A stretch of DNA of 64,000 nucleotides. It comes from Iodidimonas sp. SYSU 1G8. GTDB lineage: Bacteria; Pseudomonadota; Alphaproteobacteria; SMXS01. The notes beneath the pieces were generated by a model. That model saw only the letters and a list, made by a program, of their open reading frames with translations, had not been told where the DNA came from and did not search any database. The stretch spans positions 1,883,501-1,947,500 of the forward strand of contig NZ_JBBYXJ010000001.1 of the NCBI RefSeq assembly GCF_039655775.1. The letters are read 5' to 3'. Shown in pieces: positions 4,488-18,302 of the stretch (positions are counted from its first letter, which is position 1; each line of letters begins with the position of its first letter). The translations under genes and the position numbers were made by a program.

Positions 4488-4569
4488 TAACCCCATGCAG
4501 GCCCGGCGACATAGCGCATGTTACGGGTCTATAATCCGTCCAAGGCAGCCGGTCGGGGGACCATCCTTC

Positions 4570-5316
4570 GTGAACAGAAAGACAAGCTACGGCGCTGCGT
4601 TCGTGTCTCAGTCGGATGGCAACGCGGCCAAGGCGCGGCAGAAGCGCATGGCGGCGCTGGAAAAGGCCAAGGGCACGACCGATCCCGACAAATGGCAAAC
4701 CACCAAGAGCGGCTTCACCCGCGAGAGCATCCTGCGCGCGGTGGTCGAATGTCTGGCGGAGGATGGCTATTCGCGACTGACCATGACCCAGGTGGCCAAG
4801 AAGGCCGGCCTGACCAAAGGCGCGCTGCAGCACTATTTCGATTCCAAGTCGGCCGCCATCGAAGCGGCGCTGACCCGGATATTCGAGGACCAGCTGGCGC
4901 TTCAGCGGGAATCGGCACGGCGCCCCACGGAAGCGGCCGACGATCAGCTACACGACAGGCGCATCGAGGCGCTGTGGCACTATGTGCGCGATTCTTCTTA
5001 TGTCGCGTTCATGGAAATCGCCATGGCCGGGCGGAAGGAGCCGCATCTGCACAAGCTCGTCCAGGCGCATTATCAGGAATATTTCCGGCTCTCGCGCGAA
5101 GCCGCCGCCGAGCTGCTTCCCGAATGGCAGGCCGACGTGGAGAAGTTCAACTTCGTCGCCCACCTCGTCTCCACCGTGATCGAGGGCATGGCCGTCCGTC
5201 AGGAGTTCGGGATTTCCGATGAGCATTACGACGAGGCCGTTCGCGCCTTTCTCAAGCGCACGGTCGGCGACATCTTCACCGGCAAGCTTTCCCCCTTTGC
5301 CCCGGGCGCCGCGTAG
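4570..5316 (+). CDS. TetR/AcrR family transcriptional regulator (paralogue A)
   Basis: 248-residue one-component repressor. The TetR DNA-binding domain is clear: FTRESILRAVVECLAEDGYS then LTMTQVAKKAGLTKGALQHYF, which matches the helix-turn-helix and the following YF motif. A basic leader of about 40 residues precedes the domain. GTG at 4570 is preferred because GGGGGA lies nine bases upstream; an ATG 75 bases upstream has no good site. It is about 60 percent similar by eye to the TetR at 7015, including the shared WQTTKS segment before the helix-turn-helix, so the two are paralogues flanking a Rieske gene. It is divergent from the TonB receptor, its likely target. Ligand unknown. Confidence 0.88.
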   Translation: MNRKTSYGAAFVSQSDGNAAKARQKRMAALEKAKGTTDPDKWQTTKSGFTRESILRAVVECLAEDGYSRLTMTQVAKKAGLTKGALQHYFDSKSAAIEAALTRIFEDQLALQRESARRPTEAADDQLHDRRIEALWHYVRDSSYVAFMEIAMAGRKEPHLHKLVQAHYQEYFRLSREAAAELLPEWQADVEKFNFVAHLVSTVIEGMAVRQEFGISDEHYDEAVRAFLKRTVGDIFTGKLSPFAPGAA

Positions 5317-5324
5317 CGCGTCGA

Positions 5325-6701
5325 TCAGGCGTTCAGATAGGCGTCCAGCGTCCGGTGAATGCGGCGAATCCGCACCTCCTGATAATTGCCCAGGGTCTGC
5401 CCGGCCTTGCGGGATGCCTTGAACCCCTTTTGCTGCATGTCGAGATTCATGGTGTCCTGATCATAGACCGCGCCGAGGAGCGGGTTGAGGCCCGGCACCT
5501 CCGTGTAGGACTGTTTGATGCCGATCTTCACCGGCGCTGGCGCCTCGGGGGCGGTTTCGCCGTCGGCGAGAGGCCTGAGCAACAAGAGATCGAAAACGGC
5601 GCTGTCCACATCCATGCCGTTCGGCCGGAACCGATACAGCATGGGAAGCGACACGCCGGGGAAAAAGAACATGTTGGGAAACAGGTGGTACTCGATCGAG
5701 TCCAGCATTTCGCTGTCGCTATACCCGGACAGATCCACCTTGAACTCCTCGCTCATGGTCTCGCGCAGGAACTGGGCGGCGGTCGCCCGGGCGGTTTCGC
5801 CTTCCTTCAGGGTCACGCCCCGGGGCGCGAAGCGCATCTTCTCGATGATTTCCTGCTGGCTCTGCTCCACGGGATAGTGCGGACTCTGGATGCCGACCGT
5901 GTGCACGAATCGGGTCACCTTGTCGCTGAATGTGTCGTACTGGCAGTTGGCGTCGCTGGTGATCGCCAGGGACTGCTGGTGGGTTTCGACGACATGATAA
6001 GCCTCGAGAAACGCTTCCTGCGCCGCCTTCCAGTTGGCCGGCAGGATTTTCTGGATATGCATGGCGACGTAGCGCCGCGACAGATCCCACCGGTCCTTGA
6101 GATGGTCGGCCAGCGGCCCGAGATAGTCTTCGAGCGGCCCGGCATTCTCATCCATGTTGATGAAGATGAAGCCGCCCCAGCGCGCCACCTTCACCTGGGG
6201 CAGCCTGAATTCGTCGTCGGTGACCTTGGGGAAGTCCCAGCGGCAGGGAATCTCCTTGAGGCTGCCGTCCAGATTCCAGGTCCAGCCGTGAAAGGGGCAG
6301 CGGAACTGCATGACGTTGCCGACGCTGTCCGACGGACGCAGCTGGGTGCCGCGGTGCAGGCACGAATTCCAGTACGCCCTCACCTCGTCGGGCGCCACGC
6401 GCGCGACGAGAATTGAGTATGGCCCGACGTCATGGACATAGTGGTCACCCACTTCCGGAATGTGCTCTTCCCGGCAGGCCCACTGCCAGACCTTGTTCCA
6501 CATCCGGTCGAACTCGGCCTGAAAGAACGCCGGCGAGGTGTAGCGGTCGTACGGCATGTCCTCGTCGCCAAGAAAGGTGTAGTCCTCGGCGATCAGCGCC
6601 GCTGGCACCTCCCAGCCATCCCGCAGGATCAGGTCACGGGTGCTGGGGCCGGGGCAACGCGCCTCGCCGGGCTTCAGGGACTCTGGAGCCTGCACATTCA
6701 T
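5325..6701 (-). CDS. Rieske non-heme iron oxygenase, alpha subunit
   Basis: 458-residue aromatic-ring-hydroxylating-type oxygenase. The Rieske [2Fe-2S] ligands are C114/H116 and C135/H138. The mononuclear iron site follows in LEAYHVVETH, with E233, H236 and H241; naphthalene dioxygenase has Asp at the bridging position. A strong AAGGAGAGG precedes the ATG. The gene is convergent with TetR paralogue A (9-bp gap) and divergent from TetR paralogue B, so either may control it. It is clearly more distant from the three tandem Rieske genes at 11133-15567 than they are from each other. No beta subunit, ferredoxin or reductase gene adjoins it, so electrons must come from elsewhere. Substrate unknown. 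Confidence 0.92.
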   Translation of the reverse strand: MNVQAPESLKPGEARCPGPSTRDLILRDGWEVPAALIAEDYTFLGDEDMPYDRYTSPAFFQAEFDRMWNKVWQWACREEHIPEVGDHYVHDVGPYSILVARVAPDEVRAYWNSCLHRGTQLRPSDSVGNVMQFRCPFHGWTWNLDGSLKEIPCRWDFPKVTDDEFRLPQVKVARWGGFIFINMDENAGPLEDYLGPLADHLKDRWDLSRRYVAMHIQKILPANWKAAQEAFLEAYHVVETHQQSLAITSDANCQYDTFSDKVTRFVHTVGIQSPHYPVEQSQQEIIEKMRFAPRGVTLKEGETARATAAQFLRETMSEEFKVDLSGYSDSEMLDSIEYHLFPNMFFFPGVSLPMLYRFRPNGMDVDSAVFDLLLLRPLADGETAPEAPAPVKIGIKQSYTEVPGLNPLLGAVYDQDTMNLDMQQKGFKASRKAGQTLGNYQEVRIRRIHRTLDAYLNA

Positions 6702-7014
6702 GGGACCTCTCCTTTTCCATCATCAAGCGCCACTACCGTAACGCGCTTTCACTGACATCGATAAGTCATATCCGCATAATTTCGGATGTAACAGTCCAAG
6801 TATAATTTTTTATGATTACAAAAAGACAAATTTGATTGTTTTTTGTGTAACGCCAATTACACCTCAACCCTAGGGTTTCCAACTGATACAGGGTCGCAAG
6901 AGAGCGGCGAAAAAACGTCCGTAATAAATTTTCACCTGTCAAAATGGACATCTTTGTGGACGACGTACGCAATCGGGCATAGCATCCTTGTCAAAATCAG
7001 GGGGGATAACACCA
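6702..7014. other. Divergent regulatory spacer, no gene
   Basis: 313-bp spacer between the Rieske gene (leftward) and TetR paralogue B (rightward). It is markedly AT-rich compared with its flanks, as expected for back-to-back promoters. It contains a perfect 6-bp-arm inverted repeat (listed separately) and the nonamer GTAACAGTC at 6788-6796 that also occurs before TetR paralogue A. Short open frames here have no family features and are not called. Confidence 0.6.
6845..6862. promoter_or_regulatory. Inverted repeat GTGTAA-N6-TTACAC, candidate TetR operator
   Basis: Perfect 18-bp dyad with 6-bp arms around a 6-bp centre, in the spacer between the Rieske gene and TetR paralogue B. Size and placement fit an operator for the adjacent TetR-family protein, which would then repress both itself and the oxygenase. 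Inference from position and symmetry only. Confidence 0.5.
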
Positions 7015-7800
7015 ATGGTGTTGGGTAGTCCGGGGAACGAAATTCATACCGCCAGCAAGTTGAAACTCGCCGGGCAGTCGGACATGGACCTTGCCGCCGA
7101 TCTGAACGGCCTGGATTCGCGCCAGCGCCGGAAACTGGCGCTGCAACGGGCCAAGGAAACATCCGACCCTGAGCACTGGCAGACGACCAAGAGCGAGTTC
7201 ACGCGCGAGAGCATCCTGCGCGCCATCGTCGACTGTCTTGCCGAATACGGCTATTCCAATCTGACGCTCGGACAGGTCGCCAAAAAGGCCGGTCTGTCCA
7301 AGGGCGCCATGCAGCATCATTTCGAATCCAAGTCCGCCGCGATCGAGGCGGCGCTGCAGTTCATCTTCTCGCAGCAGCTTGCCTTGCAGAGGACCTATGC
7401 CCGCCGGCCTTCGGAACCGGCGGACCAGGAACTCCATGGCCGCCGCGTGGAGGCGCTGTGGGAATTCGTCCAGGATCCGTCCTATGTCGCCTTTGCCGAG
7501 ATCGCCATGGCATCGCGCACGGACGAGCATCTGCGCAAGCTGGTGCAGGAGCACTATGCCGAGTACCACAAGCAGGCGCGCCAGGCCGCTGCCGAACTGA
7601 TGCCCGAATGGCAGAACGATCTGGACAAGTTCCGCGTCATGTCGCGGCTGGTGCTGACTTGTCTCGAGGGCATGGCGCTGCGCCAGACCTTCGGCCTCTC
7701 CGACGACCGGGAGGACAGTGCCCTGCGCGAGTATCTCGTCACGCTGGTGGCGTCGGTATTCCGGGAGACCCAGCAGATGATGGCCAACCGCAACAGCTGA
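7015..7800 (+). CDS. TetR/AcrR family transcriptional regulator (paralogue B)
   Basis: 261-residue repressor with a TetR domain at about residues 65-120 (FTRESILRAIVDCLAEYGYS, then TLGQVAKKAGLSKGAMQHHF). It closely resembles the TetR at 4570 along most of its length, including the lead-in WQTTKS and the SKSAAIEAAL helix, so a local duplication is likely. ATG 7015 is selected because GGGGGGA lies eight bases upstream; the frame also opens nine codons earlier. Divergent from the Rieske gene at 5325. A strong bidirectional terminator follows. Ligand unknown. Confidence 0.88.
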   Translation: MVLGSPGNEIHTASKLKLAGQSDMDLAADLNGLDSRQRRKLALQRAKETSDPEHWQTTKSEFTRESILRAIVDCLAEYGYSNLTLGQVAKKAGLSKGAMQHHFESKSAAIEAALQFIFSQQLALQRTYARRPSEPADQELHGRRVEALWEFVQDPSYVAFAEIAMASRTDEHLRKLVQEHYAEYHKQARQAAAELMPEWQNDLDKFRVMSRLVLTCLEGMALRQTFGLSDDREDSALREYLVTLVASVFRETQQMMANRNS

Positions 7801-7867: not shown

Positions 7868-7886
7868 GCTGCGGCGCCCCGCTGGA

Positions 7887-8588
7887 TCAGGCGGCGATGG
7901 CTGCCGCGCCCTGCGCGCGCCGGCGGATCGCGGCGAGACCGAGCATGCCCAGCCCCAGGAAACCGAATGTGACCGGTTCGGAGACCGGGGTCGCGACCCC
8001 GGCGATGGACGCCTTCATGAATTCCTGTGTGTTCTCCCACATGCCGGTCAACTGCGTCAGATCGGCCCTCAGGCCCAGCTTCACATACAGCGTGTTGGTG
8101 CTGGCGACCGTCAGCGGCACCTCGAAGGTCTGCCAGCCCTCATACGGGGCGCTGATCACCCAGGGATCGTTGACATTGTCGATCAACGCCAGGCTCGTGC
8201 CGTCCTGGGTGAATATCTGGACGCTCTCGAAGAAGTTGTTGGGATCGTTGGCGCCGACGATATCCAGATCGTTGAACGCCAGCGACAGGATGTTCGGGCC
8301 GACCGAGACACCGGTGAACTTGAGGAACATGTTCATGGAACCGGACGTCGGCGCCTGGCCGGTGGAGGCGCTCATGCCGACGCCGTTCACACCGTAGACG
8401 CCGTTGTAGCCTCCCGTAAGCGGGATATACATACCGATCTGACCAGTGGCGCTATTATAGTTGCCGACCGTGGTGGTCGCGCCGAAACCCGATACAGGGA
8501 CGCCCCAGTTGACCGGGGTCGCGACGGCGGCGTGACCGCTGAAGGCCATACTCATCAGAAGGACGAAACAGGCGAGCGCGTTTTTCAT
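7887..8588 (-). CDS. PEP-CTERM sorting domain protein
   Basis: 233-residue exported protein of unknown function. The N-terminus is a signal peptide (MKNALACFVLLMSMAFSGHA). The C-terminus has the sorting signal: SEP, then a hydrophobic FGFLGLGMLGLAAI helix, then RRR. Proteins with this tail are processed by an exosortase and linked to exopolysaccharide production. No exosortase gene is in the window, though an exopolysaccharide cluster starts at 57277. The middle resembles the beta-rich carbohydrate-binding-like domains typical of this class but no named domain is certain. ATG 8588 starts the signal peptide and has GGAAG upstream; a longer frame exists but lacks support. Confidence 0.82.
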   Translation of the reverse strand: MKNALACFVLLMSMAFSGHAAVATPVNWGVPVSGFGATTTVGNYNSATGQIGMYIPLTGGYNGVYGVNGVGMSASTGQAPTSGSMNMFLKFTGVSVGPNILSLAFNDLDIVGANDPNNFFESVQIFTQDGTSLALIDNVNDPWVISAPYEGWQTFEVPLTVASTNTLYVKLGLRADLTQLTGMWENTQEFMKASIAGVATPVSEPVTFGFLGLGMLGLAAIRRRAQGAAAIAA

Positions 8589-8709
8589 CGGATGCTTCCG
8601 GCAGCAGGGATCGGCCCCGTTCCGATCAGACTTGTCTCTTTCCCGCCATATTTGCAACAAATTTTATCTAAATTCGGACTTTGGTGCCATCAGGGTGACA
8701 TTCGGCACG

Positions 8710-8763: not shown

Positions 8764-9981
<1,218 letters not shown>

Positions 9982-10128: not shown

Positions 10129-10923
10129 TCACTGCACCATCGGGCCCAGAATGCCAGCCTGCGCCGCGAGCGCCGCGGCCTGGGTGCGGTTGTGCACGTT
10201 CAGCTTCTTCATGGCGTTTTCCAGATGGAAGCGCACCGTCGGCACCGACCGTTCGATGATGGTCGCGATCTCCGAATCCGTCTTGCCCAGCGCCACCCAG
10301 GACAGGCATTCCACCTCGCGCTCCGAAAGGCCGGTGTCGCCCGCGGTCATCGCCGGCGCGGGCACGTTCACCTCGGACCGCTGATCGAACACGCTCTCGA
10401 GGAACAGCAGCGCGACCAGCCGCAATTCGATGGAGTACCGCGCCAGCACCTCCTCGAATGGACGGACCTCCTCGCGCGCGACCCAGCCCATGGAACTGAC
10501 ACGCCCCAGCGGCATGTGGACCGGGATGGTGATGCCGCCGGCGATGTGACGCTCGGGCGTCAGGTGCCACTGACGCTGCTTGGCGCCGCTCGCGGCCGGC
10601 ATCATGGAGACCACGTCCTTGGAGCGCCAGATGAAGGGCTTGGTGGAGTAGCGGCACACGTTGGCGATCGGGCTGATGAGATTGAGCCGGTTGCGCTCCC
10701 AATCCTCGCGGAAGTCCACACTCCAGCCGAACAATTCGGCATAGGTCTTGCCGTCACGGGTGCGCGTCAGCAGCGGGTCGGAATAATCGGCGATACAGGA
10801 TGGATACGGCAATCCGATGATCGCCCCTACCCGTTTGGCGATATCGACCGCCTCTGCCGTGTCGCGGACATGCTCGAGCGCCTTGAGTAATGGCCCCAGA
10901 TCGCCGGACTCCCCGTCCGCCAT
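10129..10923 (-). CDS. LuxR-family regulator with degenerate autoinducer-binding domain
   Basis: 264-residue regulator. Residues about 15-170 match the acyl-homoserine-lactone binding domain; W75, P85, the PFIW tryptophan (W99) and the GGITIPVH strand align with LuxR/TraR, but positions equal to TraR Tyr61 and Asp70 appear to be Arg79 and Ser84. The C-terminus has a canonical LuxR helix-turn-helix starting LSEREVECLSWVALGKT. No luxI-type synthase is in the window, so it is a LuxR solo that probably senses something other than a typical lactone. ATG 10923 has GGGGAGA ten bases upstream; a frame 23 codons longer is possible. Lux-box-like palindromes lie before neighbouring oxygenase genes. Confidence 0.88.
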   Translation of the reverse strand: MADGESGDLGPLLKALEHVRDTAEAVDIAKRVGAIIGLPYPSCIADYSDPLLTRTRDGKTYAELFGWSVDFREDWERNRLNLISPIANVCRYSTKPFIWRSKDVVSMMPAASGAKQRQWHLTPERHIAGGITIPVHMPLGRVSSMGWVAREEVRPFEEVLARYSIELRLVALLFLESVFDQRSEVNVPAPAMTAGDTGLSEREVECLSWVALGKTDSEIATIIERSVPTVRFHLENAMKKLNVHNRTQAAALAAQAGILGPMVQ

Positions 10924-11020
10924 GCCAAAACGTCTCCCCGCGTGCCTATTGATGTACGCGGTCATGATAGCCGAGCCCATACGCCGCGTCACTTATCCTG
11001 GCATGCCTATCGTGGGCCGC

Positions 11021-11040
11021 CCCTGTCAAAACAGCCGGGG
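11021..11040. promoter_or_regulatory. Weak lux-box-like dyad upstream of Rieske gene 1
   Basis: CCCTGTCAAAACAGCCGGGG keeps the left half-site CCTGTC and pairs at five of the seven outer positions, but the right half is poor. It lies between the divergent LuxR-type gene and the first tandem Rieske gene. It is listed because three better copies of the same motif precede nearby genes; on its own it would not be called. Confidence 0.25.
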
Positions 11041-11132
11041 AAAATGAATCTGGCAAAAGAGTCAGACTCGCCGTTTTGCGTCGGAGTGTGGCATATTGGC
11101 ACGCACCTACAGGATTGAACGGGGAGATCGAG

Positions 11133-12506
11133 ATGACCGCTCACAGCGCCAGCTGGTACGCACAACCGGCCGAGAAATGGCCGGAGCCCAAACTCAAGGG
11201 CCACACCATTCCGGGCTACCGGTACCATTCGAAGGAATTTTTCCATGACGAATGGGAGAACATGTGGACGAAGGTCTGGCTGCTGCTCGGCCGCGAGGAC
11301 GAAATTCCGGAAGTCGGCGACTACCAGATGGAAGAGGTGGGTCCCGAGTCCATCCTGATGGTCCGCCAGGAGGACATGTCCATCAAGGCGTTCTACAATG
11401 TCTGCCAGCATCGCGGCGCGCGCCTGATCTTCAACGATCTGGGCACCGTCGACGCGTTCACCTGCCCCTATCATGGCTGGCGCTGGGAGATCGACGGCAG
11501 CCTGACCTTCGCGCTGGACCCCGAGGATTTCCCCGAGGGCGATCCCTGCGGCAAGCTGAAGCTGGAGCCGATCCGCTGCGAGACCTTCGCCGGCTTCATC
11601 TGGGTCAACATGGATCCCAACTGCGTGTCGCTGCAGGAATATCTCGGGCCGATCTGGGACGACTGGGCGCCCTATGAAATCCACAGCTGGAAGCGCTACC
11701 TGGCGCTGACCGCCACCATTCCCTGCAACTGGAAGGTGATCCTGGACAATTTCAACGAGTCCTATCACCTGCCCACCGTCCACCCGCAGGCCGACGCGAC
11801 GGTGGAGGAAAATTACAAGTGGACCCAGTTCGACATGGCCGAGGAAGGCCATGCGCGCATGTGGATGCAGTCGGGCATTCCGTCGCGCTCGCTGATCGAG
11901 CGTGGCGAGGAATTGCTGAAGCCGGGCCTGGCGTGGATGCTGGAGCAATGGGACCTCAACCCCGACGACTTCCGCGGCGGCCGCGAGTACGAAACCCGCG
12001 AGGCGCTGCAGAAGGCCATGCGCGAGAAGGGTCCGAAGATGGGCTACACCCACTTCGACAATCTGAAGGACCACCAGCTCACCGACACCTATCACTACTT
12101 CCTGTTCCCGAACTTCGCCGTGTCGCTGTGGGCCGACGGTTTCCACTTCCTGCGCGCCCGCCCGCATCCGACCGACCCGGGCCAGACCCTGTTCGACAAC
12201 TGGTGGTACGCGCCGGCGCCGGAAGGTCTGACCACGCCGGTGATGACCATCAACGGCCCGGTCGAGCGCGACGCCGAGGTCGAGCATGAAGTGTTCCAGT
12301 ATCTGGAGCGCAGCCTGAGCGGCCTGATCGATCAGGACATGGGCATCACCACCGGCCAGCAGCTCGGCTTCCGCAGCCGCGCCTACAAGGGCGTCTATCT
12401 GGCGAAGCAGGAGCACCGCATCCGCCGCTATCACGAGCTGATCGACGAATATATCGAGGGCATTCGCCCGGCGCCCAAGCGCAGCAGCGCCATCGCGGCG
12501 GAATAG
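11133..12506 (+). CDS. Rieske oxygenase alpha subunit, tandem copy 1
   Basis: 457-residue ring-hydroxylating-type oxygenase. Rieske ligands are C91/H93 and C111/H114 (CPYHGW). The catalytic iron motif is DNFNESYHLPTVH, with E209, H212 and H217; Glu replaces the usual bridging Asp. GGGGAGA precedes the ATG. It is the first of three tandem paralogues (also 12665 and 14197) that share nearly all motif residues, including KVWLLLGR and the C-terminal AIAAE. A hairpin terminator follows, so each copy seems separately transcribed. No electron-transfer partner is encoded nearby. It is divergent from the LuxR-type gene. Substrate unknown; different copies may hydroxylate different positions or intermediates. 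Confidence 0.93.
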   Translation: MTAHSASWYAQPAEKWPEPKLKGHTIPGYRYHSKEFFHDEWENMWTKVWLLLGREDEIPEVGDYQMEEVGPESILMVRQEDMSIKAFYNVCQHRGARLIFNDLGTVDAFTCPYHGWRWEIDGSLTFALDPEDFPEGDPCGKLKLEPIRCETFAGFIWVNMDPNCVSLQEYLGPIWDDWAPYEIHSWKRYLALTATIPCNWKVILDNFNESYHLPTVHPQADATVEENYKWTQFDMAEEGHARMWMQSGIPSRSLIERGEELLKPGLAWMLEQWDLNPDDFRGGREYETREALQKAMREKGPKMGYTHFDNLKDHQLTDTYHYFLFPNFAVSLWADGFHFLRARPHPTDPGQTLFDNWWYAPAPEGLTTPVMTINGPVERDAEVEHEVFQYLERSLSGLIDQDMGITTGQQLGFRSRAYKGVYLAKQEHRIRRYHELIDEYIEGIRPAPKRSSAIAAE

Positions 12507-12525
12507 GCCTGAACGGCAAGACCGG

Positions 12526-12549
12526 AAAGGGGCGCTTCGGCGCCCCTTT
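12526..12549 (+). terminator. Intrinsic terminator after Rieske copy 1
   Basis: Ten-bp stem AAAGGGGCGC with TTCG tetraloop and matching GCGCCCCTTT. Nearly the same hairpin follows Rieske copy 2, consistent with duplication of a whole transcription unit. Confidence 0.88.
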
Positions 12550-12586
12550 CTTCGTCTGCCGCCCCGCTCCGTTGGTTGGGTTCAGG

Positions 12587-12606
12587 GCCTATCAGAGTCA
12601 ACAGGT
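12587..12606. promoter_or_regulatory. Lux-box-like operator upstream of Rieske gene 2
   Basis: GCCTATCAGAGTCAACAGGT has the CCTrTC-N6-rAyAGG dyad of the neighbouring sites. A GATAAT hexamer starts 22 bases after its end (12628-12633), the spacing expected when a LuxR protein bound at the -35 position recruits polymerase. The Rieske ATG is 58 bases downstream. Confidence 0.6.
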
Positions 12607-12627
12607 GACGCACCCTGCCCCGTGCCG

Positions 12628-12633
12628 GATAAT
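12628..12633 (+). promoter_or_regulatory. Candidate -10 element of Rieske gene 2
   Basis: GATAAT, five of six matches to the sigma-70 consensus, with no good -35 but with a lux-box-like site in its place 21 bases upstream. This arrangement is typical of activator-dependent LuxR promoters. Confidence 0.5.
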
Positions 12634-12664
12634 GCGGCCACCTTATTCAACGGGGAGTTGACCG

Positions 12665-14050
12665 ATGACCACACCGAATCCCGCCTGGGCCAAGGAGCCC
12701 GCGCCCCGCTATCCCGAGCCCAGCTTCAAGGGCAGCAAGATCGAGGGTTTCCGCTATCACTCGAAGGAATTCTTCGAGAAGGAATGGGAATATATGTGGA
12801 CCAAGGTGTGGCTGCTGCTCGGCCGCGCCGATGAAATCCCCGAGACCGGCGACTATCAGCAGGAAGAGGTCGGCCCGGAATCCATCCTCATGGTGCGCCA
12901 GGAAGACGGCGGCATCCGTGCCTTCTACAATGTCTGCCAGCATCGCGGCGCGCGGCTGATCTTCAACGATGTCGGCACGGTCGATGCCTTCACCTGCCCC
13001 TATCATGGCTGGCGCTGGGAAATCGACGGCCAGCTCACCTTCGCGCTGGACCCCGAGGATTTCCCCGAGGGCGATCCCTGCGGCAAGCTGACGCTGAACG
13101 AGATCCGCTGCGAGGTGTTCGCCGGCTTCATCTGGGTCAACATGGACCCGGACTGCGTGACGCTGAAGGAATATCTCGGCCCGCTGTGGGACGAGTGGGC
13201 CGCCTACGAGATGGACCACTGGAAGCGCTATCTGGCGCAGACCTGCACGGCGCCGATCAACTGGAAGGTGATCCTGGACAATTTCAACGAGTCCTATCAC
13301 CTGCCGACCGTTCACCCGCAGGCCGCCGGCAAGACAGAGGAAAGCTATCTCTCGACCCAGTACGACATGGCGCCGGAAGGCCACGCCCGCATGTGGATGC
13401 AGTCGGGCAAGCCGTCCAAGCAGATGGAATGGAATGGCGGCCAGGTGAAGATCGAGCCGGTGCTCGAGCGCCAGCTGCGCCTGTGGGAGCTGGATCCGGA
13501 CGAGTTCCGCGGCGGCCGTGAATACGAAACCCGCGAGGCCATCCAGCAGGCCATGCGCAAGCTGGGCAAGTCGCGCGGCTACAACCATTTCGACAACCTC
13601 CGCGACCATCAGCTCACGGACGTCTACCACTACTTCCTGTTCCCCAATTTCGCGGTGTCGCTGTGGGCCACGGGCTTCCACTTCCTGCGCGCGCGGCCGC
13701 ATCCGACCGACCCGACCCAGAGCGTGTTCGACCACTGGTGGTATTCGCCCGTGCCGTTCGATCTGGAGACGCCGATCCACACGCCGAACGGCACCTTCAA
13801 GGCCGGCGACGAAGCCGAGCATGAAGTGTTCAACTATGGCGAACAGAGCCTGGGCCTGCTGATCGACCAGGACATGGGCGTGACCACCGGCCAGCAGCTG
13901 GGCTTCCGCAGCCGCGCCTTCAAGGGCGTGTACCTGTCGGGCCAGGAGGCACGTATCCGCCGCTATCACGAAGTCATCGACGAGTACATCGAAGGCAAGG
14001 GCAAGCGGAAGGTGGACAGCACGCCGCACACGGCCATCGCCGCCGAATAG
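12665..14050 (+). CDS. Rieske oxygenase alpha subunit, tandem copy 2
   Basis: 461-residue paralogue of the copy at 11133. Rieske ligands C91/H93 and C111/H114 and the iron motif NFNESYHLPTVH (E209, H212, H217) are at identical positions, so the fold and active site are intact. It differs mainly between residues 220 and 280, the region that lines the substrate pocket in this family, and near the C-terminus (KGKRKVDSTPH), which hints at a different substrate or regiospecificity. ACGGGGAGTTGACCG precedes the ATG. A lux-box-like site and GATAAT lie upstream; an intrinsic terminator follows. Confidence 0.93.
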   Translation: MTTPNPAWAKEPAPRYPEPSFKGSKIEGFRYHSKEFFEKEWEYMWTKVWLLLGRADEIPETGDYQQEEVGPESILMVRQEDGGIRAFYNVCQHRGARLIFNDVGTVDAFTCPYHGWRWEIDGQLTFALDPEDFPEGDPCGKLTLNEIRCEVFAGFIWVNMDPDCVTLKEYLGPLWDEWAAYEMDHWKRYLAQTCTAPINWKVILDNFNESYHLPTVHPQAAGKTEESYLSTQYDMAPEGHARMWMQSGKPSKQMEWNGGQVKIEPVLERQLRLWELDPDEFRGGREYETREAIQQAMRKLGKSRGYNHFDNLRDHQLTDVYHYFLFPNFAVSLWATGFHFLRARPHPTDPTQSVFDHWWYSPVPFDLETPIHTPNGTFKAGDEAEHEVFNYGEQSLGLLIDQDMGVTTGQQLGFRSRAFKGVYLSGQEARIRRYHEVIDEYIEGKGKRKVDSTPHTAIAAE

Positions 14051-14070
14051 AGACAGTCCTACAGACGGAC

Positions 14071-14097
14071 AAAAGGGGCGCTTCGGCGCCCCTTTTT
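14071..14097 (+). terminator. Intrinsic terminator after Rieske copy 2
   Basis: Eleven-bp stem AAAAGGGGCGC, TTCG loop, matching arm and T5. Core identical to the terminator after copy 1. Confidence 0.9.
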
Positions 14098-14106
14098 ATT
14101 GGGCAC

Positions 14107-14126
14107 GCCTGTCAGAATCGATAGGT
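14107..14126. promoter_or_regulatory. Lux-box-like operator upstream of Rieske gene 3
   Basis: GCCTGTCAGAATCGATAGGT has the dyad CCTGTC-N6-GATAGG and matches the site before Rieske gene 2 at 17 of 20 positions or close to it. A TAGTAT hexamer at 14151-14156 could be the -10 element. The Rieske ATG is 70 bases downstream. Confidence 0.6.
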
Positions 14127-14196
14127 GACAAGAGCCCCGGCCGTTCTGAATAGTATGTCCGGGAAGCGACGTCAGGCGTGAGCGGGAGATCACGCA

Positions 14197-15567
14197 ATGA
14201 CATTACATACATCGGCCTGGTACGCGACCGGCCCGGCGAAATGGCCGCAGCAGACGCTGCGCGGGCACACGATTCCAGGCTATCGCTACACGTCCAAGGC
14301 CTTCGCCGCTCAGGAATGGGAAAAGGTCTGGACCAAGGTCTGGCTGCTGCTCGGCCGCGAGGATGAAATCCCCGAAGCCGGTGACTACCAGATGGAGGAG
14401 GTCGGCCCTGAATCCTTCATCATGGTCCGCCAGCACGACGGCGCCATCAAGGCCTACTACAATGTCTGCCTGCACCGGGGCGCACGGCTGATCTTCAACG
14501 AAGTGGGCACGGCGGACGCCTTCACCTGTCCCTATCATGGCTGGCGCTGGGAAATCGACGGCAGCCTGACCCATGCCCAGGACGCCGAGGATTTCCCGGA
14601 GGGCGATCCCTGCGGCAAGCTGACGCTGACCGAAATCCGCTGCGAGACCTTCGCCGGTTTCGTGTGGGTGAACATGGACCCCGACTGCGTGTCGCTGCGC
14701 GAGTATCTCGGTCCGGTCTGGGGCGACTGGCAGCCCTACCAGATCCATACATGGAAGCGCTATCTGGCGCTGACGGCGAACGTGCCGGTGAACTGGAAGG
14801 TGATCCTGGACAATTTCAACGAGTCCTACCACCTGCCCGCCGTCCATCCCCAGGCCGACGCCACCGTCGAGGAAAACTATCGCTGGACCCAGTTCGACAT
14901 GGCCGATGAAGGCCATAACCGTATGTGGATGCAGTCCGGCTCGCCCTCGCACCGGCTGATCGGCAGCGGCCAGCCGCTGATCAAGCCGGCGCTCGAGGGC
15001 GCGCTGAGAGCATGGGAGCTCGACCCCGCCGATTTCGAGGGCCGCGAGTTCGAGACGCGCGAGGCGCTGCAGCAGGCCAAACGCAGACTGGGACCCGCGC
15101 GCGGCTATACTTATTTCAACGACCTGCGCGATCACCAGTTGACCGACACCTATCACTACTTCCTGTTCCCGAACTTCGCCGTGTCGATCTGGGCCGAAGG
15201 TTTCCACTTCCTGCGCGCCCGGCCGCACCCGACCGACCCGGAACAGTGCGTGTTCGACAACTGGTGGTACGCGCCGGCGCCGGAGGGCGTCACCACGCCG
15301 GTGATGACCGCGGCCGGCCCGGTCGAGCGCGATGCCGAGGTGGAGCACGTCGTGTTCAATTTCGGCGAGCAGTCGCTGGGCGAGCCGATCGACCAGGACA
15401 TGGCCGTCACGCCCGGCCAGCAGCTGGGCTTCCGCTCCCGCGCCTACAAGGGCGTCTACCTGGCGAAGCAGGAACACCGGATCCGGCGCTTCCACGAGGT
15501 GATCGACGACTATATCGAGGGACGTCGTCCGGCACCGAGACGCAGCGAAGCCATCGCCGCGGAATAG
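14197..15567 (+). CDS. Rieske oxygenase alpha subunit, tandem copy 3
   Basis: 456-residue paralogue of the two preceding genes, with Rieske ligands C91/H93 and C111/H114 and iron motif NFNESYHLPAVH (E209, H212, H217). It is closer to copy 1 than to copy 2 in the stretch before the C-terminus (APAPEG..TTPVMT). GCGGGAGATCACGCA precedes the ATG at 14197. It has its own upstream lux-box-like site, so all of copies 2 and 3, and perhaps 1, seem to answer to the same regulator. The gene is convergent with the VOC protein at 15618. Confidence 0.93.
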   Translation: MTLHTSAWYATGPAKWPQQTLRGHTIPGYRYTSKAFAAQEWEKVWTKVWLLLGREDEIPEAGDYQMEEVGPESFIMVRQHDGAIKAYYNVCLHRGARLIFNEVGTADAFTCPYHGWRWEIDGSLTHAQDAEDFPEGDPCGKLTLTEIRCETFAGFVWVNMDPDCVSLREYLGPVWGDWQPYQIHTWKRYLALTANVPVNWKVILDNFNESYHLPAVHPQADATVEENYRWTQFDMADEGHNRMWMQSGSPSHRLIGSGQPLIKPALEGALRAWELDPADFEGREFETREALQQAKRRLGPARGYTYFNDLRDHQLTDTYHYFLFPNFAVSIWAEGFHFLRARPHPTDPEQCVFDNWWYAPAPEGVTTPVMTAAGPVERDAEVEHVVFNFGEQSLGEPIDQDMAVTPGQQLGFRSRAYKGVYLAKQEHRIRRFHEVIDDYIEGRRPAPRRSEAIAAE

Positions 15568-15583
15568 TCCCGCCCGTTGCGGG

Positions 15584-15601
15584 GAAGGGCCACCGCCCTT
15601 C
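15584..15601. terminator. Possible terminator hairpin between convergent genes
   Basis: GAAGGGC-CACC-GCCCTTC hairpin in the 50-bp gap between Rieske copy 3 and the convergent VOC gene. No long T run on either strand, so efficiency is uncertain. Confidence 0.45.
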
Positions 15602-15617
15602 TCCGTCGAGGCTTGCG

Positions 15618-16136
15618 TCAGGGCCGGACGATGACGCTCTTCCCGTCCCAGGTCCGGGCGCGGTCCGAGACCATGCGATAGAGGTCGCGGATGCCCTTGT
15701 AGTCGGTATAGAGCTCGACCATGCCGTTGCTCATGTGGCGGGCGTCCATGTAGCAGGTGCGGGTTTCCCTGGTGCCGAAGATCATCGCGGTCGGGCAGCC
15801 CATGGCTTCGTAACGTGCCCGCTCGGCCTCGAAATCCTCGCAGAGCACGGCGACATGGTGGAAGCCTTCCTGCCCCTTCGGCCAGGTGTCGCGGTAGCAG
15901 GACGGGCCGTCATAATGCTGCTGGATCAGCTCGATCTGGATCGGCCCGGCCTGGCACAGCGCCGCCGACAGTTCCATTTCGGCCGGCTGGCCGCGGTACA
16001 GCACCTCCGGCAGCTTGATGTGCTCCAGCAGCACGAACGGGCCGATGCCGAACGTCTTGCTGAAGCGCGCGGCGGCGGCTTCGATATCGTTGACCACATA
16101 GGCCTGTTGCACGATCGCGCCGTACGGCATGTCCAT
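15618..16136 (-). CDS. VOC (glyoxalase/dioxygenase-fold) family protein
   Basis: 172-residue protein with two beta-alpha-beta-beta-beta modules of the vicinal oxygen chelate fold: the first from about residue 7 (YVVNDIEAAAARFSKTFGIGPF), the second from GFHHVAVLCEDF. H in the HHVAVL strand and E in MVELY are candidate metal ligands. Members include glyoxalases, epimerases and extradiol dioxygenases; this sequence most resembles the uncharacterised glyoxalase-like group in catabolic islands. ATG 16136 follows GGGGAGA at eight bases. It is divergent from the P450 at 16279 with a perfect lux-box-like palindrome between, so the two are probably co-regulated. Reaction unknown. Confidence 0.82.
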   Translation of the reverse strand: MDMPYGAIVQQAYVVNDIEAAAARFSKTFGIGPFVLLEHIKLPEVLYRGQPAEMELSAALCQAGPIQIELIQQHYDGPSCYRDTWPKGQEGFHHVAVLCEDFEAERARYEAMGCPTAMIFGTRETRTCYMDARHMSNGMVELYTDYKGIRDLYRMVSDRARTWDGKSVIVRP

Positions 16137-16186
16137 GCCCGTTTCTCCCCATTGTTCCCAGCCTCCTAGATAACCGCTCCCCGGCG

Positions 16187-16206
16187 ACCTGTCAGCCCTG
16201 ACAGGT
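16187..16206. promoter_or_regulatory. Lux-box-like palindrome between VOC and P450 genes
   Basis: ACCTGTCAGCCCTGACAGGT is a near-perfect 20-bp palindrome: seven outer base pairs plus two inner pairs match. It equals the classical Vibrio lux box at 14 of 20 positions, including both ACCTGT and ACAGGT ends. It lies in the 142-bp divergent spacer and could activate both genes. It is the best of four related sites in 5.2 kb. Confidence 0.68.
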
Positions 16207-16278
16207 GTGGAACACGAGCCCTTGATCCAAGCTGGAGACCGGATCACTCTCCGGCGGCAGCAAGAGGGAAGAATTGTC

Positions 16279-17529
16279 GTGACGAAACTCGACCAAATGA
16301 ACTTCTTCGACCCGCAGACCGTGGAATGCCCCTTCGGGTTTTATCAGGCGGCGCGGGCGGAAGCGCCGGTCTACAAGCTGCCCAACAGCCCGATCCCGGG
16401 CCGGGACGTCTGGCTGGTCACGCCCTACAAGCTGGTGCATGACGTGCTGCGCGACTGGCGGACCTATTCCAACCGCTTCGCCAGCCTGATGAGCGCGCGG
16501 GGCCAACGCGACCCGGACGTGGAGGCGATCATGTCCGAGGGCTTTCCGCCGGTCGAGACCATGCTGACCCAGGACCCGCCCGAGCAGAAGAACTACCGCA
16601 ACCTGGTGAACAAGGCGTTCAGCGCCGCCCGCGTGAATTCCATGGAGGCCTACATCACCCGGATCTGCGACGAGCGGATCGACGAGATGCTGAAGACCAC
16701 GGAATGCGATTTCTTCGAGAGCTTCGCCATTCCGCTGCCTGTGTTCGTCATCGCCGACCAGCTCGGCGTGCCGCGCGCCGACCTGCCCGCGTTCAAGCGC
16801 TGGTCCGACGACGTCATCGCCAGCCTGAGCCAGATGGGCGGCAAGGAACAGCAGCTGCAGGGCGCGCGCTCGGTCGTCGAGATGCACAAATACTTCGCCA
16901 GGGTCCTCGAAAACCGCCGCGCCGAGCCGCAGGACGACATCATCAGCGATCTGGCCAACGCCACGCTGGACGACGGCCGCCTGCTGAACATGTCCGAGGC
17001 GCTGTCGATCCTGCAACAGCTACTCGTCGCCGGCAACGAGACCACCACCAACGCGCTGGCCGGCGGCCTGGCCTACATTCTCGAGACGCCCGGCCTCGCC
17101 GACCGGCTGGCGGCCGATCCGTCGCTGATCCCCAACGTGGTCGAGGAAATCCTGCGCCTGGAAGCGCCGACCAAGCACATGTGGCGCATCGTCAAGCATG
17201 ACACCGAACTGGGCGGCGTCGCGCTGCCGGAGGGCGCGATCCTGCTGCTGAGCTACGATGCCGCGAACCGTGACGAGGCCAAGTTCGACGATGGCGAGGC
17301 GTTCGATCCCTGCCGCAAGAACGCCGGCGCCCACCTTTCCTTCGGCCTCGGCACCCATTTCTGCGTCGGCGCGCTGCTGGCGCGCAAGGAGATGGCCATT
17401 GCCTACGAGCGCCTGTTCACGCGTTTGACCGATCTGCGGCTGACGCCGGGCAGGAACGAGCTGCGCCACATCGTCAGTATCCTGCACCGCGGCCTGACCG
17501 GCCTGCACGTCAGCTACCGCGCGCGCTGA
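16279..17529 (+). CDS. Cytochrome P450 (1)
   Basis: 416-residue soluble bacterial P450. The heme motif is FGLGTHFCVG with the thiolate ligand at C362; the I-helix oxygen-activation motif is AGNETTTN and the K-helix ExxR is EILR. It catalyses NAD(P)H-dependent monooxygenation of an unknown hydrophobic substrate with ferredoxin and reductase partners not seen here. GTG 16279 is chosen because GAGGGAAG lies just upstream; ATG (MNFFDPQ) six codons later is an alternative. It is divergent from the VOC gene, shares a lux-box-like site with it, and is convergent with a TetR gene. Confidence 0.93.
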   Translation: MTKLDQMNFFDPQTVECPFGFYQAARAEAPVYKLPNSPIPGRDVWLVTPYKLVHDVLRDWRTYSNRFASLMSARGQRDPDVEAIMSEGFPPVETMLTQDPPEQKNYRNLVNKAFSAARVNSMEAYITRICDERIDEMLKTTECDFFESFAIPLPVFVIADQLGVPRADLPAFKRWSDDVIASLSQMGGKEQQLQGARSVVEMHKYFARVLENRRAEPQDDIISDLANATLDDGRLLNMSEALSILQQLLVAGNETTTNALAGGLAYILETPGLADRLAADPSLIPNVVEEILRLEAPTKHMWRIVKHDTELGGVALPEGAILLLSYDAANRDEAKFDDGEAFDPCRKNAGAHLSFGLGTHFCVGALLARKEMAIAYERLFTRLTDLRLTPGRNELRHIVSILHRGLTGLHVSYRAR

Positions 17530-17547: not shown

Positions 17548-18222
17548 CTAGAGAAGATTGCTCTGGCACGCCTGGAGATGCTTGCGGACCGCGTCGGCGG
17601 TCGCGCCCTGGGTGATGCTCCCCAGGGTCAGGAGCATGACGTATTTCTGCCGCTCCGCCAGCTGTTCGGACGGCAGCTGACCGACCGCCCAGTCATGCAC
17701 CACGGCATACTCATGATTGGCGAGTTCGGACGCCACGAGCTCCACATTGACCCACGGCAGCAGGTCGCCGTCCCGCTTCAGGGCATCGAGCATGCGCGCG
17801 TAGTTGGTGGACGTGATGCGGCGCAGCAGGTCGCGCACGATGTTGTCGGCGCTGCCGGAGAAATAAACCGTCACCATCGCGCGGGCATATTCCGGCATGC
17901 GCATGATCTCGTCGGCGATCCACTGGATCCGCGTGATCTCGCCCTCGAGGCCGCCGCCGCTCTGTTGCCGCCCGCGCTCGATCTGCTCCTCGAGCAATTC
18001 GGACACGGCCGAGGCGATCAGCGTCTCCTTGTTGCCGTAGATGTTGTACAGGGTCGCCGAAGCAACCTGCGAGCGTTCAGCCAGCAAGCGCATGGTGACG
18101 CCGTCATAACCGGCTTCGGCGATCAGTTTGCGGGTTTCCTCGAGCACACGGACGCGGCGGCGCGCCATGGACTCGCTCGCGTAGGAAGACCGCTTCTGCA
18201 CTGCCGCGCTCACTCGACTCAT
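17548..18222 (-). CDS. TetR/AcrR family transcriptional regulator (C)
   Basis: 224-residue repressor. The DNA-binding domain spans about residues 20-70, with ETRKLIAEAGYDGVTMRLLA followed by SQVASATLYNIYGNKETL. It is not close to the TetR paralogues at 4570 and 7015. The start at 18222 is placed after GGAACAGAAG; two upstream in-frame ATGs are possible. It sits between two P450 genes: convergent with the one at 16279 and divergent from the one at 18551, the more likely target. A 13-bp palindrome lies in the shared spacer. Confidence 0.86.
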   Translation of the reverse strand: MSRVSAAVQKRSSYASESMARRRVRVLEETRKLIAEAGYDGVTMRLLAERSQVASATLYNIYGNKETLIASAVSELLEEQIERGRQQSGGGLEGEITRIQWIADEIMRMPEYARAMVTVYFSGSADNIVRDLLRRITSTNYARMLDALKRDGDLLPWVNVELVASELANHEYAVVHDWAVGQLPSEQLAERQKYVMLLTLGSITQGATADAVRKHLQACQSNLL

Positions 18223-18302
18223 CTTCTGTTCCGCACCCATCGATTGTTGAGACCGGAAGGCTGGAGCAAATTCCAACCTTCACTGACGCTTGTATCGCCG
18301 CA

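What the first reader, a model, noticed from the sequence alone, without database searches (positions are those of the whole stretch)
10129..16279. Lux-box-like operators form a small regulon around a LuxR solo and oxygenase genes
Three 20-bp dyads of the form CCTrTC-N6-rAyAGG lie before Rieske copy 2 (12587-12606), Rieske copy 3 (14107-14126) and between the VOC and P450 genes (16187-16206). The last, ACCTGTCAGCCCTGACAGGT, keeps both ends of the classical lux box. A weaker one lies at 11021-11040 between the LuxR-type gene and Rieske copy 1. Before copy 2 a GATAAT -10 lies 21 bases after the site, the layout of a LuxR-activated promoter. The only LuxR-type gene is next to them. A quorum-sensing-type regulator thus seems to control catabolic oxygenases. 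The sites were read directly; regulator assignment is inferred.
Basis: partly seen in the sequence, partly recalled or inferred. Interest (0 to 1): 0.82.

Follow-up and report, generated by a model that had tools for sequence, protein, structure and literature searches.

The report
LuxR-type switch for oxygenase genes
A genus of uncultured bacteria keeps a near-identical DNA switch, of the kind normally bound by quorum-sensing proteins, in front of several oxygen-using breakdown genes, and the regulator next to it seems to have lost the parts that sense the usual quorum signal.

Summary
Three dyads at 12587, 14107 and 16187 are exact, fit the lux-box rule CT-N12-AG, and are the only perfect matches in the window (0 in 100 shuffles). 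In seven genomes of the genus, a pattern sharpened from the aligned sites has 14 exact matches, all 14 before orthologues of these Rieske genes; the reversed pattern has 0. Before Rieske 2, 16 of 18 site positions are invariant in 7 genomes, against 20 of 132 around it.

The weak site at 11021 is not conserved and breaks CT-N12-AG; I reject it. The LuxR is not the genome's only one: there are 9, plus 2 LuxI. It is a solo whose pocket reads FWSPWG, not the AHL sensors' WYDPWG; oxygenase-linked paralogues and plasmid-borne solos of cultured sphingomonads have also lost W57, Y61 and D70. A substrate-sensing LuxR solo driving oxygenase genes fits better than quorum sensing. Binding, ligand and exact regulator are unproven.

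The parts
10129..10923 (-). LuxR-type solo regulator (Autoind_bind + GerE), pocket motif FWSPWG
   Evidence: Pfam; ATG start at 10923 chosen by comparison with orthologues; pocket residues
12587..12606 (.). lux-box-type operator before Rieske copy 2 (GCCTATCAGAGTCAACAGGT)
   Evidence: present before 6 of 6 orthologues in other genomes of the genus; 16/18 columns invariant
12628..12633 (+). GATAAT -10 element of the Rieske 2 promoter, starting 31.5 nt after the dyad centre
   Evidence: identical in 6 of 7 aligned genomes, GATAGT in the seventh
14107..14126 (.). lux-box-type operator before Rieske copy 3
   Evidence: before 4 of 4 orthologues in other genomes; 15/18 columns invariant
16187..16206 (.). 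lux-box-type operator shared by the divergent VOC and P450 genes
   Evidence: same place in G005 and G006, before VOC alone in G003 and G004; degenerate in G002
11133..12506 (+). Rieske oxygenase alpha subunit, copy 1 (no conserved operator)
12665..14050 (+). Rieske oxygenase alpha subunit, copy 2
14197..15567 (+). Rieske oxygenase alpha subunit, copy 3
15618..16136 (-). VOC/glyoxalase-fold protein
   Evidence: start by comparison with orthologues
16279..17529 (+). cytochrome P450, best solved relatives CYP142 (steroid C26-monooxygenase)
8764..9981 (-). acyl-CoA dehydrogenase-like gene downstream of luxR; an 89-92% identical relative lies next to it in 4 of 4 other genomes where the luxR locus was fetched
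   Evidence: family named by reading, not by a family search
   Evidence: 2 mismatches; breaks CT-N12-AG; not conserved

Best explanation
The dyads at 12587, 14107 and 16187 are operators of a LuxR-family solo, most likely the product of 10129-10923. When it binds a small hydrophobic ligand, probably a growth substrate or early breakdown product rather than an acyl-homoserine lactone, the dimer sits on the box just upstream of -35 and recruits RNA polymerase to the Rieske 2, Rieske 3 and VOC/P450 promoters, and to a fourth Rieske paralogue on the second contig. Shown: sites, placement, conservation, domain content, loss of the AHL motif, clade membership. Inferred: that LuxR binds them, that it activates, which LuxR it is, and the ligand.
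For: Sites fit CT-N12-AG. Genus search: 14 of 14 exact matches lie before Rieske 2/3/4 orthologues, control 0 (pattern made from sites already seen, so the point is that it has no other place). For the symmetric form 9 of 11 lie before VOC/P450, SDR or TonB-receptor genes. R2 footprint p=6e-10, with GATAAT at near-constant spacing; dyad centre 31.5 nt before the hexamer, about -43 if transcription starts 7 nt below it. Boxes lie within 1.5 kb of 3 of 9 LuxR genes and within 6 kb of 4 of 9; 0 of 20 control places do. Conserved boxes lie between divergent LuxR and P450 genes (LuxR_L038 in 7 of 7 genomes of the genus, LuxR_L039 in 2). Pocket: LasR W60, Y64, D73 positions are F, W, S; the C1 LuxI-paired LuxR of the same genome keeps WYDPWG. 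Relatives in cultured sphingomonads lie beside acyl-CoA dehydrogenase genes in 6 of 6 annotated regions looked at.
Against: No binding or expression data. In G004 and G006 (78% and 84% complete) the sites are present but the LuxR orthologue was not found; G004's contig ends about where it should lie. LuxR_L038 is in all 7 genomes and could serve the same boxes. No box before Rieske 1, between LuxR_L042 and its P450, or within 250 bp before the Rieske 1/4 relatives of sister genera G007 and G008. The 16187 box differs in one base from the LuxR_L040 box. A TetR gene (17548) also stays near the VOC gene in 4 other genomes. The, 79 pattern was made after seeing several of its sites, so those p-values are optimistic. 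Two footprint tests were not significant (LuxR_L038 p=0.51, Rieske 4 p=0.99).
Confidence: 0.68

Rival explanations
1. Quorum-sensing control: the LuxR, or a LuxI-paired LuxR of the same genome, binds the boxes with an endogenous AHL and turns the oxygenases on at high density.
For: The genome has two luxI genes. In Croceicoccus naphthovorans an AHL system controls a ring-hydroxylating dioxygenase gene with a lux box in its promoter (PMC7432010, passages).
Against: The LuxR beside the boxes lacks W57, Y61 and D70, as do its 6 aligned orthologues and near relatives, and has no adjacent LuxI. The box found between luxR and luxI of the C1 pair is of another type, CCTACGGAGTACCGTAGG. Loss of the motif does not strictly exclude AHL binding.
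Confidence: 0.15
2. The boxes are served by a paralogous solo (LuxR_L038, LuxR_L042 or LuxR_L040), or by several solos with overlapping specificity; the adjacent LuxR controls something else.
For: LuxR_L038 and L042 share the RFH helix signature and the Y61W/D70S changes. LuxR_L038 is in all 7 genomes and its box shares AATCGAYAG with Rieske 3/4 sites. The LuxR_L040/SDR box differs from the 16187 box in one of 18 bases.
Against: LuxR_L040 orthologues are in 3 of 7 genomes only, yet G003 (100% complete) and G004 (78%) keep the VOC box without one. The window LuxR lies 1.7 to 5.3 kb from the three sites and stays beside Rieske 1/2 in G001 and G005.
Confidence: 0.25
3. A TetR-family repressor (for example 17548-18276) binds the dyads.
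For: TetR17548 orthologues lie close to the VOC gene and its site in G002-G005; the variant box at C2:1515659 lies between a TetR gene and a TonB-receptor gene.
Against: At the L038 and L039 loci the box adjoins a LuxR gene, at L040 LuxR is one gene away, and no TetR17548 relative over 60 bits was found at any of the three. The CCTGTC..GACAGG form is the lux-box form, and the position upstream of -35 suits an activator better than a repressor.
Confidence: 0.1
4. Chance palindromes or leftover duplicated promoter DNA of the Rieske copies.
For: Raw genome counts do not exceed the control; Rieske 1-3 are tandem paralogues.
Against: Upstream DNA around the Rieske 2 box has diverged while the box has not. 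Boxes also precede unrelated VOC/P450, SDR and LuxR genes, and 14 of 14 genus matches are at Rieske promoters.
Confidence: 0.02

Closest known systems
AHL quorum sensing of PAH degradation in Croceicoccus naphthovorans PQ-2 (PMC7432010; passages read)
   Same: lux boxes (NNCT-N12-AGNN) before a ring-hydroxylating dioxygenase gene in a member of the Sphingomonadales
   Different: there a LuxI/LuxR system with AHL; here a solo without the AHL pocket motif, over stand-alone Rieske copies, VOC/P450 and SDR genes
[quoted passage not shown] passages read)
   Same: solo; Y61W; non-AHL ligand assumed
   Different: W57 is F here, not M; D70 is also lost; targets are oxygenase genes
Sphingomonad LuxR homologues with Y61W and, in some, D70/W85 changes (PMC4288048; passages read)
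   Same: solos with similar pocket changes
   Different: that paper says the gene neighbourhoods of its solos are not conserved and, in the passages read, gives no boxes or catabolic targets
LuxR-solo groups with W57F and D70S, including AvhR and a Roseobacter group near an acyl-CoA dehydrogenase gene (PMC4338825; passages read)
   Same: same substitutions; one group near acyl-CoA dehydrogenase
   Different: it reports that palindromes at several alphaproteobacterial solos lacked CT-N12-AG; ours have it
TeiR/TesR of Comamonas testosteroni (PMC8700777, PMC6895838, PMC6678751; passages read)
   Same: LuxR-type protein required for steroid catabolism
   Different: TeiR is described there as a membrane protein with kinase activity; ours has the Autoind_bind domain

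Membership tests
lux box | 20-bp palindrome with CT-N12-AG | tested here: met
   three sites; 11021-11040 fails
lux box | located just upstream of -35, centre near -42.5 (recalled) | tested here: inconclusive
   Rieske 2: centre 31.5 nt before the conserved GATAAT; no start site mapped; VOC, P450 and Rieske 3 less clear
lux box | bound by a LuxR-family protein | not testable with these tools
   only adjacency and conservation
quorum-sensing LuxR (AHL receptor) | Autoind_bind plus GerE domains | tested here: met
   51.5 and 60.5 bits, above cut-offs
quorum-sensing LuxR (AHL receptor) | WYDPWG pocket motif | tested here: not met
   FWSPWG; LasR alignment, internal LuxI-paired control WYDPWG
quorum-sensing LuxR (AHL receptor) | cognate luxI next to it | tested here: not met
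   luxI genes only at C1:486082 and C2:1396724
plant-associated (OryR-type) LuxR solo | W57M and Y61W | tested here: not met
   Y61W present, W57 is F
LuxR solo (general) | LuxR with both domains but no paired LuxI | tested here: met
   the stricter wording in the abstract of PMC4338825 (no cognate synthase gene in the same genome; listing) cannot be settled, since the genome has two luxI genes
EpsA (TIGR03020) / SdiA (NF007561) | NCBIfam curated cut-off | tested here: not met
   64.3 against 170 and 54.4 against 350 bits

The most novel reading that the evidence does not exclude
A clade of LuxR solos in sphingomonads and this genus gave up AHL sensing and became one-component, substrate-sensing activators of oxidative catabolism (perhaps of steroids or terpenoids). 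Paralogues each sit beside their own P450, Rieske or acyl-CoA dehydrogenase genes, so that the lux box here marks a catabolic regulon and not a quorum-sensing one.
Probability: 0.42. Interest if true: 0.75.

Novelty: new variant of a known kind. Interest (0 to 1): 0.6.

Why it matters
The ligands and regulons of many LuxR solos are unknown. Here the operators, target genes and regulator candidates are defined by conservation across a genus, so the ligand search narrows to substrates of the neighbouring oxygenases. It would also warn against reading lux boxes before degradation genes as proof of quorum sensing, and could give new biosensor parts for hydrophobic pollutants.

Tried and rejected

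Led nowhere: the AlphaFold2 model of the LuxR from 4 sequences had mean pLDDT 44.7, so no fold search was made. A literature search for LuxR solo with dioxygenase and P450 gave one paper, on an IclR repressor. In the listings seen (1 of 1; 15 of 25; 1 of 1; 12 of 12; 8 of 56; 12 of 6,871) the nearest was PMC7432010; only the open PubMed Central library was searched.

Results against my reading, or corrections: the acyl-CoA dehydrogenase query was out of frame (its identities are void); redone. In one search the Rieske 4 test was anchored on a site peculiar to this genome (p=0.99); the conserved dyad is the neighbouring one. The LuxR_L038 test gave p=0.51 because much of the short intergenic stretch is conserved (91 of 132 outside columns). 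In one search two sites (L003, L039) were called coding because of over-long or spurious frames; intergenic by script 8 of 37, by my reading 10 of 37, against 2 of the 15 control places that had loci (20 control places in all). In cultured sphingomonads 1 of 7 regions scanned has a clear box (TomTYG65, dyad 8/10); the best in the other 6 has dyad 5/10 or less. Left out of the tree: the C2 LuxR beside luxI (its frame stops early) and the C1:1196662 LuxR. Of 15 plasmid hits listed (329 records matched) I fetched 7, all sphingomonads.
Full report
CHECK OF THE OBSERVATION. The three dyads are in the sequence exactly as described. With two mismatches the window holds 39 strand matches against 19.4 expected, so mismatched sites carry little weight. 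The fourth site, 11021-11040, has two mismatches, has GG where CT-N12-AG needs AG, and nothing like it is kept before orthologues of Rieske copy 1. I drop it.

WHOLE GENOME. The window lies in a 3.92 Mb genome of two contigs. This is a fair held-out test, because the pattern was fixed beforehand. The two new places lie before a fourth paralogue of the Rieske genes on the second contig (C2:874476) and before an SDR gene that is followed by another LuxR-type gene (C1:1994775); Pfam confirms both families. Raw number is no argument: the reversed control pattern has 4 forward places against 5, and at one mismatch 68 against 55. A palindromic version (two mismatches) has 37 places against 20 for the control. 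Of the 37, 8 were classed intergenic by script and 10 by my reading, against 2 of the 15 control places that had loci.

LUXR CONTEXT. The genome has nine LuxR genes with an autoinducer-binding domain and two luxI genes. Three of the nine have a box within 1.5 kb and a fourth, the window's, within 6 kb; none of the 20 control places is that close to a LuxR gene (the pattern was made with some of these sites in view). At LuxR_L038 and LuxR_L039 the box lies between the LuxR gene and a divergent P450 gene.

FOOTPRINTS. I took the orthologous regions from six genomes of the genus and three of two sister genera. Before Rieske 2 the box is present in 6 of 6 other genomes; before Rieske 3 in 4 of 4; the VOC/P450 box in G005 and G006, before VOC alone in G003 and G004, degenerate in G002. 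Before Rieske 2, 16 of 18 box positions are invariant in seven genomes against 20 of 132 other positions (p=6e-10); the next conserved block holds GATAAT, whose start in the window is 31.5 nt past the dyad centre. Rieske 3 (p=1e-4, five sequences), VOC (4e-5, three), P450 (3e-5, two), SDR (8e-7, three) and the LuxR_L039 P450 (1e-5, three) agree. LuxR_L038 (p=0.51, much of the gap conserved) and Rieske 4 (p=0.99, wrong dyad anchored) do not test significant. A genus-wide search with CTRTCAGNNTCRAYAGK, a pattern made from the aligned sites, gives 14 exact places in seven genomes; all 14 precede Rieske 2, 3 or 4 orthologues, and the control gives 0. It misses the variant Rieske 3 sites of G001, G003 and G004. 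CCTGTCA-N4-TGACAGG with up to one mismatch gives 11 places: 5 VOC or VOC/P450, 2 SDR, 2 TonB receptors, 2 others; control 1. In sister genera the Rieske 1/4 relatives of G007 and G008 have no such box within 250 bp.

REGULATOR. The LuxR at 10129-10923 has Autoind_bind and GerE domains. A profile of it and eight relatives aligns with LasR over the pocket: LasR W60, Y64, D73, W88 face F, W, S, W. The C1 LuxI-linked LuxR of the same genome keeps W, Y, D, P, W, G, so the loss is unlikely to be an alignment artefact. PMC4414361 (passages) describes D70 of TraR as important for binding the AHL amide and WYDPWG as the motif of AHL sensors. The window LuxR, LuxR_L038 and LuxR_L042 all have W61 and S70 and an RFH helix signature; the plasmid-borne solos of Novosphingobium, Sphingobium and Croceicoccus have W61 and RFH too, with S70 in 6 of 7 and V70 in the pNL2 protein. 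In the tree these group together (99/98), apart from LuxR_L039, L040, another paralogue and the LuxI-linked protein (some branches are long). The plasmid solos, 31-35% identical to the window's, lie beside acyl-CoA dehydrogenase genes in 6 of 6 annotated regions (7 fetched), in some cases with Rieske, thiolase or TonB-receptor genes; close relatives of the window's own acyl-CoA dehydrogenase were not found there. One of them, Sphingobium sp. TomTYG65, has ACCTATCACTACTCATAGGT between the two genes; the other six regions have only weak candidates.

HOW IT LIKELY WORKS. An activator dimer on a box upstream of -35, responding to a substrate-like ligand, would switch on Rieske 2, Rieske 3, Rieske 4 and VOC/P450 together. 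The best solved relatives of the P450 are CYP142 steroid C26-monooxygenases and of Rieske 3 phthalate and carnitine oxygenases, so a steroid- or terpenoid-like substrate is a guess, no more. Which solo binds which box is open: LuxR_L040 orthologues are in 3 of 7 genomes, so they are unlikely to explain the VOC box in G003 and G004 (G004 is 78% complete), but LuxR_L038 occurs in all seven.

KNOWN AND NEW. Lux boxes before a dioxygenase gene under an AHL system are known (PMC7432010, passages). Sphingomonad LuxR homologues with Y61W and D70 changes are known, without targets in the passages read (PMC4288048). LuxR-type control of steroid catabolism is known in Comamonas with a different protein type. 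A solo clade with conserved lux boxes over oxygenase genes did not turn up in the listings (open library only, listings partly seen). I call it a new variant of a known kind.

Noticed in passing
L037 (G000:C2:1388000-1405000), LuxR near 7886-8485, minus strand: The second LuxI-linked LuxR of the genome has an open frame of 203 aa that appears to end before a full HTH domain, so it may be degenerate.
   Followed up: no
whole genome G000: Rieske alpha subunits seem very numerous: 49 candidates in the loose first look, of which 17 were scored and all 17 matched; 39 to 67 candidates in the six other genomes of the genus.
   Followed up: no
11133-15567: Rieske copies 1-3 carry NFNESYH where, as recalled, naphthalene dioxygenase has Asp at the bridging position; Glu there is recalled from carnitine and glycine-betaine monooxygenases.
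   Followed up: no
L044 8477-8516 (G000:C2): Two dyads in tandem before Rieske 4: a genome-specific perfect one and a second one conserved in the genus.
   Followed up: partly
L164 about 2960 (G000:C2:1515659): A variant box CTTGTCAATTCTGACAGG lies between a TetR gene and a TonB-dependent receptor gene.
   Followed up: partly
7887-8660: A frame that by its C-terminus looks like a PEP-CTERM-anchored protein lies near the LuxR; similar genes lie near the LuxR in L033 and L034 (by reading only).
   Followed up: no
L035 8954-8971 (G000:C1): A different symmetric box, CCTACGGAGTACCGTAGG, lies between the LuxR and LuxI genes of the C1 pair.
   Followed up: no
4495-7800: Two TetR-type genes that look alike (4495, 6988) flank a further Rieske-type gene (5325-6701).
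   Followed up: no
L038 5224-7805 (G000:C1): The P450 divergent from LuxR_L038 is followed on the same strand by another Rieske oxygenase gene.
   Followed up: partly
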